Assembly (NCBI GenBank): GCA_021733985.1
Contig: JAIPJT010000021.1
Coordinates: forward strand, 1 to 43,171
From: Victivallales bacterium
GTDB lineage: Bacteria > Verrucomicrobiota > Lentisphaeria > Victivallales > GWF2-38-69
Direction: 5' to 3'
DNA length: 43,171 nucleotides
Position 1 is the stretch's first letter. Each line of letters opens with the position of its first letter. Made by a program: the position numbers and the translations under genes. Shown here in pieces: positions 69 to 43,096 of this stretch. Under the pieces are notes generated by a model. The model was not told the DNA's origin. It searched no databases and worked only from the letters and a program-made list of their open reading frames with translations.

Positions 69-282
69 GCACCGCAATTATGAAAAAGGGAATCCAAAAC
101 CATATGAATTGATAGAGCTAACTTTTGAAACATTTGAAAAGATATTTGCTTCTATACCTAATGAAAATACAAGAAAACAACTTATAAATAAGTATAAAAA
201 GTATATTTCTGAATTTCAGAGTAGTATTTTCCGTTTATCGGGGTCGTTGTTAGATAACATCTTGCATAATAATAGGATATAA
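52..282 (+). pseudogene. C-terminal fragment of an unknown protein, running into the repeat
   Basis: After a TAG at 49-51 the frame stays open to a TAA at 280-282. It contains no ATG, so it is probably the 3' remnant of a gene rather than a complete one. The middle of the translation (ELIELTFETFEKIFASIPNE, codons from 106) is protein-like, with alternating hydrophobic and charged residues. The last 15 or so codons lie inside the repeat that begins at 237, so that part of the tail is repeat-derived. I do not recognise the family. A gene cut by insertion of the repeat is the simplest explanation. Confidence 0.3.
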
Positions 283-506
283 TAATAGTCTTCGATATGG
301 AAGGCTTAGATGTTTAAAAATATATAGTTTTTATGATTTTAAATATTTTATTTGATAAGAACCATTGCACAGAAATATAACCATTTAAAAAAAGAGAAGG
401 TTCTTTCTGGAGGGATCGCTACCATATAACATTAATTGAGAATGGCTGAAAAATATAATTATCTATCTAATTTATTATTAGATTATTAGTTAACAACGAC
501 CACAAT
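237..506 (+). repeat. MITE-like repeat with inverted ends, copy 1 (complete)
   Basis: The left end (ATCGGGGTCGTTGTTA, from 237) is matched in reverse complement by the right end (TAACAACGACCACAAT, 491-506) with two mismatches. Positions 239-457 recur at 1151-1370 with only about ten differences and one indel. The right end, 450-503, recurs inverted at 43043-43096. Inside are a hairpin (AGTCTTC/GAAGGCT around GATATG) and a promoter-like pair, TTGATA at 352-357 and TATAAC at 376-381. No transposase is encoded, so it fits a non-autonomous element. There is no obvious target-site duplication. Confidence 0.7.
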
Positions 507-567
507 AAATTTCGCGCGGCCGAACAGCCGAATGTACCCTGACAGCGCCCCATTATCCAGAAATGAC

Positions 568-625: not shown

Positions 626-868
626 ATGACAACATTAACTGCAACAGAAGCAAGAACAAGGCTTTATAGATTACTTGATGATGTTTCAGAATCACATGAT
701 CCTGTCCACATTACAGGTAAAAGGCATTCTGGCGTTTTAATATCTGAAGAAGACTGGAATAGTATTCAGGAAACCTTAAATCTTCTTTCTATTCCTGGTA
801 TGAGAGAATCAATAGTTGAGGGAATGAATACAGCAGTAGAAGAATGCAGTGAGGAACTGGAATGGTAA
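626..868 (+). CDS. Phd/YefM-family antitoxin
   Basis: This 80-residue protein has the Phd/YefM plan. Residues 1-50 form an N-terminal DNA-binding fold (TATEARTRLYRLLDDV, then PVHITGKRHSGVLISEEDW), and an acidic C-terminal tail should wrap the toxin. It is expected to neutralise the YoeB-like toxin encoded next and, with it, repress the promoter at 568-609. The ATG follows an AAAGGA ribosome site at a normal distance. Its stop overlaps the toxin start by 7 bases, the typical coupled arrangement. The pair sits between two copies of a repeat, a common setting for mobile addiction modules. Confidence 0.88.
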   Translation: MTTLTATEARTRLYRLLDDVSESHDPVHITGKRHSGVLISEEDWNSIQETLNLLSIPGMRESIVEGMNTAVEECSEELEW

Positions 869-1128
869 AGTGGAAGCTGGTATATACTAAACAAGCTCAT
901 AAAGACGCTAAGAAACTTTATTCATCCGGTTTAAAGCCCAAAGCATTAAAACTTTTAAAAATATTAGAAAAAAATCCTTATCAAACACCTCCACCCTTTG
1001 AAAGACTTGTGGGAGATTTAAAGGGAGCAGTTTCCAGAAGAATAAATATCCAACATAGACTTGTTTACCAGATCCTTGAAGAAGAAAAAATTGTTAAAGT
1101 AATTAGAATGTGGACACATTATGAATAA
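862..1128 (+). CDS. YoeB/Txe-family mRNA interferase toxin
   Basis: This 88-residue RelE-superfamily toxin of the YoeB/Txe branch should cleave mRNA in the ribosomal A site. Features matching YoeB include PFERL (Glu47), SRRI (Arg59/Arg60), HRLVYQ (65-70) and a C-terminal WTHYE with His86. These correspond to the Glu, Arg and C-terminal His needed for catalysis in E. coli YoeB. A GAGGA site inside the antitoxin gene precedes the ATG. All the expected catalytic residues are present, so the toxin looks intact. Confidence 0.88.
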   Translation: MVKWKLVYTKQAHKDAKKLYSSGLKPKALKLLKILEKNPYQTPPPFERLVGDLKGAVSRRINIQHRLVYQILEEEKIVKVIRMWTHYE

Positions 1129-1148
1129 ATCGGTATTAATCGCTATTA

Positions 1149-1370
1149 ATCGGGGTCGTTGTTAGATAACATTTTGCATAATAATAGGATATAATAATAG
1201 CCTTCGATATGGAAGGCTTAGATGTTTAAAAATATATAGTTTTTATGATTTTAAATATTTTATTTGATAAGAACCATAGCACAGAAATATAACCATTTAA
1301 AAAAGGGAGAAGGGTTTTTCTGGAGGGATCGCTACCATATAACATTAATTGAGAATGGCTGAAAGATATA
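1149..1370 (+). repeat. MITE-like repeat, copy 2 (right end missing)
   Basis: This is a near-identical direct copy of 239-457, offset by 912 bases. It ends at 1370, where copy 1 continues into its right inverted end, so this copy is truncated or was joined to other DNA there. The hairpin is conserved, and its one changed base (AGCCTTC instead of AGTCTTC) turns a G-U pair into G-C. A short tandem duplication, TATTAATCG twice, lies just before it (about 1133-1151). Its truncated end lies only about 15 bases from the ribosome site of the next gene. Confidence 0.75.
1264..1293 (+). promoter_or_regulatory. Promoter inside repeat copy 2, facing the amidinotransferase-family gene
   Basis: TTGATA (1264-1269) and TATAAC (1288-1293) are separated by 18 bases and read toward the gene at 1396. 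The same pair occurs in copy 1 at 352-381, facing the toxin-antitoxin pair. No other good promoter is visible between this repeat and the downstream gene. The repeat therefore probably supplies its transcription start near 1300. This is a sequence match only. Confidence 0.45.
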
Positions 1371-1395
1371 GCTGTTTCTATACCTAAGGAGGGAA

Positions 1396-2466
1396 ATGAA
1401 AAAGAAAATTTTTTGCAATTCTTTTCTGATTTTTTTATTCACTATTACTTCGGGGCTTTTTGCAAGGGAAATTCAGCGTAAAGGAAAACCGATTTCAGTG
1501 AACTATGAATGGGACAAATTAGAAGAAGTGATCCTTGGATCTCCGAAAAAACTAACAGTTCCCGGAAATTGTCCCACTATTAAATTCGGATTTGACTATC
1601 AAAGCGGCAACGAGGAATGGATTAAAAAACACGGAGGTCAGGAGATGTCTGAAATTGATCCTGATTTCTATAAAAAGCTTGTTCAGCAATCAGATAATCT
1701 CGCAAAAATCCTTGAATCTCATAATATTAAGGTACATCGCCATAATCCTGATTTACTGACTCCGGAAGAGCTTGTATTTATGTCAGATTTGGAGAAAGGT
1801 CATAATTTTCTTTATCCAAGAGACCCTGTTATAGTTATCGGGAACCATGTTATCGAGACTGCTTTAAAATTACCTATGCGTACGAAAGAAAAATTTATTA
1901 TAAGGAAGATCTTTAATAGAATTCGTATGAATCACCAGAATTTTAAATATGTTTCTGTACCTTCGGTATCACCTTCTTTTCCTGTGAAAGGAGGAATTTA
2001 TCTGGAAGGCGGCGATGTAATGCTCAACGGATATGAAATTTATGTTGGCCATTCAGGAAACGCATCAAATAAAGCCGGCATTGAATGGCTACGCAACTAC
2101 CTGGGAAAAGATTATACTGTTCGCCAGATAGAAATCAAAGATTTTCAGCACCTGGATTGCGTGTTATCACTTATACGTCCGGGCCTTGCTGTTCGTTGTC
2201 CGGATGCCTTTGTCGGAAGCCTGCCGGATTCTCTAAAAAACTGGGATTTCATCAATATTCCTCTTGAGGATGCTAAAAAATTAGCATGCAATGTATTTGT
2301 TATTGATCAAAATACAGTTATAATTGATGAAAGATTCACATATTTGAAAGAAGAACTGGAAAAACGCGGGATAAAAGTCATAAGCATCCCATTTGACGCA
2401 ATCGCGCAAATGGGAGGAGGATTTCGTTGTTCTCATCATCCTGTGCGACGTATTAAAAAGAAGTAA
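1396..2466 (+). CDS. Exported amidinotransferase/guanidino-modifying enzyme
   Basis: This 356-residue protein belongs to the amidinotransferase/arginine deiminase superfamily (PF02274 type). A signal peptide spans about residues 1-23 (basic start, hydrophobic stretch, LFA). The body carries YPRDPVIVIGN (140-150, as in glycine and inosamine amidinotransferases), EGGDV (204-208), HLDC (His252) and GGGFRCSHHPVRR with the nucleophile Cys345. All catalytic positions are present. Motifs are mixed: RD..IVIGN..IE resembles amidinotransferases, while EGGDV and GGGxRC resemble deiminases, so transfer versus hydrolysis cannot be decided. Export is unusual, since most characterised members are cytoplasmic. 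A strong AAGGAGGG site precedes the ATG, and transcription probably starts in the repeat upstream. Confidence 0.78.
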   Translation: MKKKIFCNSFLIFLFTITSGLFAREIQRKGKPISVNYEWDKLEEVILGSPKKLTVPGNCPTIKFGFDYQSGNEEWIKKHGGQEMSEIDPDFYKKLVQQSDNLAKILESHNIKVHRHNPDLLTPEELVFMSDLEKGHNFLYPRDPVIVIGNHVIETALKLPMRTKEKFIIRKIFNRIRMNHQNFKYVSVPSVSPSFPVKGGIYLEGGDVMLNGYEIYVGHSGNASNKAGIEWLRNYLGKDYTVRQIEIKDFQHLDCVLSLIRPGLAVRCPDAFVGSLPDSLKNWDFINIPLEDAKKLACNVFVIDQNTVIIDERFTYLKEELEKRGIKVISIPFDAIAQMGGGFRCSHHPVRRIKKK

Positions 2467-2814: not shown

Positions 2815-2892
2815 TGGTCGGGATGAGAGGATTCGAACCTCCGACCTTTTGACCCCCAGTCAAACGCGCTAACCAGGCTGCGCTACATCCCG
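2815..2892 (-). tRNA. tRNA-Pro (anticodon GGG)
   Basis: The minus strand folds into a full cloverleaf. The acceptor is CGGGATG/CATCCCG, the D arm is GCGC/GCGC, the anticodon stem is TTTGA/TCAAA with loop CTGGGGG, and the T arm is GGAGG-TTCGAAT-CCTCT. The loop gives anticodon GGG (proline). The discriminator base is A, and CCA is encoded at 2817-2815. It lies just downstream of the SRP RNA on the same strand. Confidence 0.95.
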
Positions 2893-2989: not shown

Positions 2990-3115
2990 AAAAAAAACGC
3001 CGCCGATTATCAGATGCACCTACAGCGCATGGCTTCTTCGCATAGGGCTGCTTGATTCCTCACCTGACCCGGTTAACGAGACTCCATCGCATAGGGTCCG
3101 AAAAATCGGCGACGC
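2990..3115 (-). ncRNA. ffs: Small bacterial signal recognition particle RNA (4.5S-like)
   Basis: The minus strand carries the diagnostic domain IV: GGGTCAGGT, a GGAA tetraloop closed by GA/TC, then AAGCAGCCC. These form the internal loops bound by the Ffh M domain. The ends pair: CGTCGCCGATT near 3114-3104 with AATCGGCGGCG at 3008-2998, giving a rod of about 118 nt without an Alu domain. A run of eight T (2997-2990) follows directly, so the terminal helix also serves as terminator. It sits between accD and tRNA-Pro. A plus-strand reading frame over this interval is spurious. Confidence 0.93.
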
Positions 3116-42880: not shown

Positions 42881-43042
42881 CCCAATCAATCTTCAAACAT
42901 GGACAAACATCCAGTATACACAAGTGTATGCAGTTTTATTGTTTTTGTTCTTTGTAACTGAACTTGGGTATGTAATTAATTTTTCTAAAACTAATTCGTT
43001 TTTGGTATATATTTTTTAAAAACTAAAAAAACTAAGGTAATT

Positions 43043-43096
43043 GGGGTCGTTGTTAACTAATTATCTAATAATAAATTAGATAGATAATTATATTTT
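43043..43096 (-). repeat. Inverted copy of the right end of the MITE-like repeat
   Basis: Fifty-four bases match the reverse complement of 450-503 with two differences, starting with the same GGGGTCGTTGTTA end. It includes an internal hairpin (AATTATCTAAT with ATTAGATAGATAATT). Sequence beyond it is unrelated to copy 1, so this is either another subfamily sharing the end or a truncated copy. The element may continue past the window. Confidence 0.7.

What the first reader, a model, noticed from the sequence alone, without database searches (positions are those of the whole stretch)
1396..2466. Exported guanidino-modifying enzyme with mixed family motifs
A clear signal peptide precedes a full amidinotransferase/deiminase-fold enzyme with Cys345, His252 and Asp207 present. 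Characterised relatives are mostly cytoplasmic. A version acting outside the cytoplasm on arginine-like groups would be unusual, and its motifs fall between amidinotransferases and deiminases.
Basis: partly seen in the sequence, partly recalled or inferred. Interest (0 to 1): 0.55.

Follow-up and report, generated by a model that had tools for sequence, protein, structure and literature searches.

The report
Exported guanidino-modifying enzyme, uncharacterised subfamily
A bacterium from the Lentisphaerae group carries a rare enzyme, apparently sent out of the cell's interior, whose active site mixes features of two known enzyme types that work on arginine-like chemical groups; its true substrate is unknown, so it is a good but modest lead.

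Summary
ORF 1396-2466 (+) encodes a 356-residue guanidino-modifying (pentein-fold) protein with a signal-peptide-like N-terminus; a confident model (pLDDT 89) matches amidinotransferases best (Z 36-38), then arginine deiminases (Z 29-32). A strong ribosome site precedes the ATG, and 11 of 15 scored family members have an export-like N-terminus: 7 pass a strict Sec-like test, 1 fails on charge only, 1 is weaker, 2 carry Tat motifs. Of 104 amidinotransferase-like controls 0 pass, though only 18 have room for a signal. The tree puts it outside the amidinotransferase clade (100/100) and outside ADI+DDAH (100/99), in a loose third group (support 41/43). Correction: the catalytic acid is Glu204, not Asp207. 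EGGD/ENGD and Arg before the catalytic Cys, in 16 of 16 members, are hydrolase-like. Best guess: a periplasmic Cys-dependent hydrolase of a guanidine other than free arginine, since a carboxylate-binding Arg of ADI/DDAH is missing. Amidino transfer remains a serious rival. Substrate, reaction and location are unproven. The gene is rare (3 of 197 genomes of its class, own included); its nearest relatives found are in other phyla.

The parts
1396..2466 (+). Exported guanidino-modifying enzyme (356 aa)
   Evidence: ORF; Pfam ADI; AF2 model pLDDT 89 and PDB matches
1386..1392 (+). Ribosome-binding site AAGGAGG, 3 bases before the ATG
   Evidence: sequence
1396..1464 (+). Signal-peptide-like N-terminus, residues 1-23 (cleavage after LFA is a guess)
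   Evidence: hydrophobic 13-mer mean KD 2.29, n-charge +3; helix 2-28
1822..1824 (+). Asp143 of the RDP motif (residue that pairs by motif with AGAT Asp170 / ADI Asp166, numbers recalled)
   Evidence: Asp in 16 of 16 members
2005..2007 (+). Glu204, proposed catalytic acid, in the EGGD motif (pairs with AGAT Asp254)
   Evidence: pairing; Glu in 16 of 16 members
2149..2157 (+). His252-Leu253-Asp254
   Evidence: HLD in 16 of 16 members
2425..2430 (+). Arg344-Cys345, nucleophile motif
   Evidence: Arg 16 of 16, Cys 15 of 16 (Ser in L096)
1133..1370 (+). Repeat copy directly upstream of the gene (other copy 221-457); mobile-element-like

Best explanation
The gene encodes an exported (periplasmic or membrane-tethered) Cys-His-Glu enzyme of the guanidino-modifying (pentein) superfamily, in an uncharacterised group that is neither the known amidinotransferases nor ADI/DDAH. 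Proposed mechanism: the N-terminal signal takes the protein across the inner membrane; Asp143 and Asp254 hold a guanidino group; Cys345 attacks its central carbon and expels an amine or ammonia; His252, supported by Glu204, activates water, which releases a ureido product. Because an ADI/DDAH Arg that holds the substrate carboxylate, and the Ser-Ser loop of the amidinotransferases, are missing, the substrate is more likely an amine-type or peptide-borne guanidine (agmatine, a guanidino-polyamine, peptidyl-arginine) than free arginine. Shown: ORF, predicted fold, conserved catalytic residues, position outside the characterised clades in the tree. Inferred: export, hydrolysis rather than amidino transfer, substrate class.
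For: Fold: pLDDT 89.2; Z 37.8 to HsvA (rmsd 2.9, 318 aligned), 37.6 AGAT, 36.0 StrB1, 32.0 ADI, 28.9 NnhA, 27.8 DDAH. Export: 7 of 15 scored members pass the strict Sec-like test; L014 fails on charge only; L145 is weaker; L098 (SRRNFCK) and L099 (NRRSFIK) have Tat motifs; controls 0 of 104 for both tests, 18 of them with room. Distinctness: outside the 17-row amidinotransferase clade (100/100) and the 9-row ADI+DDAH clade (100/99). Hydrolase-like motifs: EGGD or ENGD 16 of 16 and Arg before Cys 16 of 16; the 17 amidinotransferases have no such GGD (DAAD, DAAN and the like) and His 17 of 17; ADI have EGGD 4 of 4 and Arg 3 of 4. PMC11659421 (passages): ADI and DDAH use a His supported by Glu plus a Cys nucleophile. 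Carboxylate Arg: the ADI 'S.RT' Arg pairs with Asn222; none of 13 aligned members has Arg in that loop.
Against: Whole-length similarity favours amidinotransferases (profile comparison 6.5e-49, against 2.2e-28 for DDAH and 2.2e-16 for ADI), and in the midpoint-rooted tree the family lies on the amidinotransferase side, so amidino transfer is quite possible. Glu alone is a weak marker: Asp in 16 of 17, but in the wider control set a pattern count gives Asp 83 and Glu 19 of 102 rows with a motif. The family's own support is weak (41/43); holding the window gene with the amidinotransferases is not rejected at 0.05 (p-AU 0.075). Four of 15 scored members gave no signal candidate (L146, L147, L102, L003); L005 was not found by the script. 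L007, not among the 13, has an Arg in an inserted part of the loop. L096 (57% identical) has Ser for the catalytic Cys. Gene neighbourhoods show no shared pathway on inspection.
Confidence: 0.45

Rival explanations
1. It is an exported amidinotransferase: Cys345 takes the amidino group from a guanidino donor and passes it to an amine acceptor outside the cytoplasm, much as HsvA does with polyamines (HsvA activity from the PDB title).
For: Best solved relatives by sequence and structure are HsvA, AGAT, SxtG and StrB1; profile comparison 6.5e-49 over 313 columns; a carboxylate-binding Arg of ADI/DDAH is missing; Glu at the acid position also occurs in 19 of 102 amidinotransferase-like control rows.
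Against: EGGD instead of DAAD/DAAN-type motifs (no EGGD in the 102 control rows with a motif), Arg instead of His before the Cys (His in 17 of 17, and in 69 of 69 control rows where the pattern matched; 35 rows had no pattern match), and the loop with the Ser-Ser-x-Trp type motif is missing.
Confidence: 0.33
2. It is an exported arginine deiminase-type enzyme acting on free L-arginine, feeding citrulline to the cell's arginine pathway.
For: EGGD, HLD and RC motifs are ADI-like; the genome also carries a genuine cytoplasmic-type ADI (522 bits, cut-off 489).
Against: Only 46 bits against the arcA cut-off of 489; a carboxylate-binding Arg pairs with Asn222; 356 residues against 407 in the genome's own ADI; an ADI already exists in the genome.
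Confidence: 0.12
3. It is not exported: the N-terminal hydrophobic stretch is a membrane anchor with the enzyme facing the cytoplasm, or the real start lies downstream (for example GTG at codon 35).
For: Four of 15 scored members gave no signal candidate; the -3 residue before the presumed cut is Leu, which is not ideal (rule recalled).
Against: Strong ribosome site at the ATG; a GTG start at codon 35 would cut into the core, which the alignment starts at about residue 33; Sec-like, Tat-type and membrane-type N-termini recur in relatives.
Confidence: 0.1

Closest known systems
HsvA, AGAT, SxtG and StrB1 amidinotransferases
   Same: Whole pentein domain (Z 36-38, 25-29% identity); Cys, His and both guanidinium-binding Asp conserved in the 17 amidinotransferase rows
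   Different: Of 104 amidinotransferase-like control rows 0 passed the export tests, 18 of them with room; they have DAAD/DAAN-type motifs for EGGD, His for Arg344 and an extra Ser-Ser loop; separate clade 100/100
Arginine deiminase (ArcA)
   Same: EGGD, HLD and RC motifs, Cys and His
   Different: Far under the arcA cut-off (46 of 489 bits); a carboxylate-binding Arg missing; shorter
DDAH and DDAH-like proteins (for example B. velezensis L149)
   Same: EGGD, HLDC and RC in L149; profile comparison 26% identity, 2.2e-28
   Different: DDAH-like rows are shorter (260-286 residues in my set); no dimethylargininase cut-off reached; separate in the tree
P. gingivalis peptidylarginine deiminase (PPAD)
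   Same: A secreted Cys-dependent enzyme of the same superfamily (PMC4893104, passages)
   Different: PPAD has an Ig-like domain and a C-terminal secretion domain (PMC4893104, passages); the window protein does not match PAD_porph PF04371
NnhA 2-nitroimidazole nitrohydrolase
   Same: Same superfamily; also lacks carboxylate-binding Arg of ADI/DDAH (PMC11659421, passages)
   Different: 16-17% identity, Z 29; NnhA has Trp for one of the two guanidinium-binding Asp, the window protein keeps Asp

Membership tests
Guanidino-modifying (pentein) superfamily | alpha/beta propeller fold with catalytic Cys and His | tested here: met
   model and PDB matches; His 16 of 16, Cys 15 of 16
Amidinotransferases (AGAT/StrB1/HsvA type) | DAAD/DAAN-type motif at the catalytic acid | tested here: not met
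   EGGD here; D-[APG]-A-[DNE] in 16 of 17 rows and EAAN in one; no EGGD in 102 control rows with a motif, though Glu in 19
Amidinotransferases (AGAT/StrB1/HsvA type) | His before the catalytic Cys | tested here: not met
   Arg344; His in 17 of 17 rows
Amidinotransferases (AGAT/StrB1/HsvA type) | branches inside the amidinotransferase clade | tested here: inconclusive
   outside, clade 100/100; AU test for forcing it in p 0.075
Amidinotransferases (AGAT/StrB1/HsvA type) | transfers an amidino group to an amine | not testable with these tools
   needs an enzyme assay
Arginine deiminase (ArcA) | reaches the NCBIfam arcA TIGR01078 cut-off (489.1 bits) | tested here: not met
   46.1 bits; the genome's true ADI scores 522.5
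Arginine deiminase (ArcA) | Arg in the S-x-R-T loop that holds the substrate carboxylate | tested here: not met
   pairs with Asn222; which Arg does this is recalled, its role from PMC11659421 passages
DDAH | reaches an NCBIfam dimethylargininase cut-off (300-450 bits) | tested here: not met
   best 31.8 bits
PPAD / agmatine deiminase (PAD_porph) | matches Pfam PF04371 | tested here: not met
   not among the families listed up to E 1; none in the genome at 0.001
Exported proteins | functional N-terminal export signal | tested here: inconclusive
   home-made hydrophobicity test passes; no SignalP and no experiment

The most novel reading that the evidence does not exclude
A widely scattered, horizontally moving family of periplasmic enzymes that carries out a guanidino reaction outside the cytoplasm on a substrate that is not a free amino acid, sitting between the amidinotransferases and the hydrolases of the superfamily and sent out by either the Sec or the Tat route in different bacteria.
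Probability: 0.4. Interest if true: 0.6.

Novelty: new variant of a known kind. Interest (0 to 1): 0.42.

Why it matters
To my knowledge (recalled) characterised guanidino-modifying enzymes mostly work inside cells or organelles, and the secreted one that I checked, PPAD, has a different architecture (PMC4893104, passages). A separate family that keeps the catalytic machinery and looks exported by different routes in several phyla would point to guanidino chemistry in the periplasm that I found no description of in seven paper searches. It also offers natural intermediates for asking what makes a pentein a transferase or a hydrolase.

Tried and rejected
Integron cassette: the recombinase at C5 is XerC/XerD-like and under the integron-integrase cut-off; the other four integrase hits were not typed. 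Rfam at the gathering threshold shows only tRNA-Pro and small SRP RNA in the window. Rejected as unsupported, not excluded.

Pathway from neighbours: read by eye for L096-L101, L145-L147 and L157-L162 (the middle's print-out was cut). I saw no recurring neighbour.

Agmatine route: the genome has aguB-like hydrolases below the cut-off (best 227 of 410 bits) and no PAD_porph enzyme at 0.001; suggestive only.

Papers: seven searches. From titles and abstract starts I recognised none as describing an exported amidinotransferase-like family; one search listed only 20 of 89 papers. Extracellular or secreted ADI is named in the papers, which I did not read.

Rows dropped: L013, L168, L156 and L102 left out of the second tree (long branches; L013 was probably the wrong reading frame). 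L009 was never in a tree. L021 left out of alignment A4 for a stop codon; L064 and L073 left out at that point too without need. L005 was not found by the export script; 7 of 111 control loci gave no row. The 1.8 hydrophobicity threshold was set after the family N-termini had been seen.

Changed on recheck: one search showed Glu at the acid position in 19 of 102 control rows, so I lowered the hydrolase reading from 0.5 to 0.45 and raised amidino transfer from 0.30 to 0.33.

Full report
What is there. ORF 1396-2466 (+) encodes 356 residues and starts with an ATG preceded by AAGGAGG. Pfam calls it ADI (2.4e-17) with a weaker DDAH match; no NCBIfam model reaches its cut-off. By sequence the nearest solved proteins are the amidinotransferases HsvA, AGAT, SxtG and StrB1, then ADI and DDAH. 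The AlphaFold model (27 sequences, mean pLDDT 89.2, pTM 0.86) matches pentein propellers and has an N-terminal helix 2-28; best matches are HsvA (Z 37.8), AGAT (37.6), SxtG (36.7), StrB1 (36.0), ADI (29.0 to 32.0), NnhA (28.9) and DDAH (27.8).

Where it lives. The window is the whole contig C44 of a 2.46-Mb, 71-contig assembly; the gene is single copy there. The genome is in the same order as G033, whose contig C172 has the same length (42,896) and encodes the same protein as the record CAIQLG010000172.1, named 'uncultured Lentisphaerae bacterium'; I take the organism to be a Lentisphaerae relative. The family is rare: 3 of 197 genomes of the class, own included; in a phylum sample of 386, 6 genomes pass the threshold, of which I count 5 as family (G199 has an amidinotransferase-type motif). 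Neither of the two same-family genomes searched has it. The nearest relatives found are in other phyla: an Elusimicrobiota MAG (59%) and a Deltaproteobacteria MAG (57%), ahead of Kiritimatiellae (44-46%); Halodesulfovibrio follows (41%). This suggests horizontal transfer; I did not test that formally.

Export. For each member I took the stretch from the upstream stop to the conserved core and looked for a start codon, an uncharged hydrophobic 13-mer (mean Kyte-Doolittle at least 1.8) and a positive n-region. Of 15 members scored (16 tried, L005 not found), 7 pass: window, L101, L096, L097, L100, L006, L007. L014 fails on charge only (2.18, charge 0); L145 is weaker (1.66); L098 (1.50) and L099 (1.01) are less hydrophobic but have twin-arginine motifs. 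Four (L146, L147, L102, L003) gave no candidate. The control set was 104 rows from 111 loci (L016-L095 viral, L103-L133 genomes), looser relatives with amidinotransferase-type motifs in the rows where a pattern matched (102 of 104): 0 pass and 0 carry the Tat motif, but only 18 have a start at least 20 residues before the core, so the fair comparison is 0 of 18. The threshold was set after I had seen the family. So export is well supported by recurrence, not proven.

Which family. In a 41-row tree the 17 amidinotransferase-like rows form a clade (100/100) and the 9 ADI and DDAH rows another (100/99); the 15 family rows lie between, one side of a branch but with support of only 41/43. The window gene pairs with L101 (100/98) and then L096 (100/97). 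Forcing it alone into ADI/DDAH gives p-AU 0.028, into the amidinotransferases 0.075. In an earlier 45-row tree that held four long or doubtful rows the family was not resolved. Profile comparison favours amidinotransferases (6.5e-49) over DDAH (2.2e-28) and ADI (2.2e-16).

Active site. On one joint alignment all 16 members have Asp143, Glu204, His252, Leu253, Asp254 and Arg344; 15 of 16 have Cys345 (L096 has Ser, codon TCG, two base changes from either Cys codon). Thirteen members read EGGD and three (L100, L003, L005) ENGD. The 17 amidinotransferases have Asp at 204 in 16, Glu in one (L118), and His at 344 in 17; ADI have Glu in 4 of 4 and Arg in 3 of 4. A wider pattern count over the controls tempers this: Asp in 83 and Glu in 19 of 102 rows, yet no EGGD. 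So GGD and the Arg beside the Cys separate the groups better than Glu itself. PMC11659421 (passages) describes the ADI/DDAH mechanism: His supported by Glu, Cys nucleophile. The Arg of ADI's S-x-R-T loop, recalled as the one that holds the substrate carboxylate, pairs with Asn222; none of 13 aligned members has Arg in that loop, but L007 has one in an insert there. The Ser-Ser-containing loop of the amidinotransferases is absent (its role in AGAT recalled). Hence the proposal of hydrolysis of a guanidine without a free amino-acid head. This is inference; the overall resemblance to amidinotransferases keeps transfer at about 0.33.

Precedent. PPAD shows that a secreted member of this superfamily exists (PMC4893104, passages), but with other domains and another Pfam family. 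Seven paper searches listed no description of this family that I recognised; the library lacks most subscription papers.

Noticed in passing
G000:C12:57122-58441 (-); L156:6120-7442: A second ADI-like protein with a signal-like N-terminus (by eye) in the same genome (440 aa, Pfam ADI 7.2e-30), with HLK in place of HLD and Ser aligned where the catalytic Cys should be: possibly an inactive exported relative. Among 60 genomes searched, own included, only the own genome has it.
   Followed up: partly
window 221-510, 1133-1370 and 43040-43096: Repeat beginning near GGGGTCGTTGTTA, with inverted arms 234-257 and 486-509 around the first copy; further copies at C11:73-191 and C8:23009-23118, three of the copies close to contig ends: a small mobile-element-like repeat that probably breaks the assembly.
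   Followed up: partly
window 626-1128 (+): A Phd/YefM antitoxin and Txe/YoeB toxin pair just upstream, between the two repeat copies.
   Followed up: no
L096:3806-4876: Close relative (57%) with Ser for the catalytic Cys; the codon is two changes away from Cys, so it is unlikely to be one sequencing error.
   Followed up: partly
L147 (OR846605.1) and PQ520363.1: Two records labelled Enterococcus phage carry a 32% relative; L147 shows no signal, and its neighbours (alkaline-phosphatase-like and cell-wall-protein-like ORFs, by eye) look bacterial rather than phage.
   Followed up: no
window 2815-2892 and 3005-3103 (-): tRNA-Pro(GGG) and small SRP RNA lie close together just downstream of the gene.
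   Followed up: no
control loci, for example L118, L123, L125: Some amidinotransferase-like proteins of marine type have EAAN or EGAN instead of DAAN (19 of 102 rows by pattern): a Glu for the usual catalytic Asp within that family.
   Followed up: no
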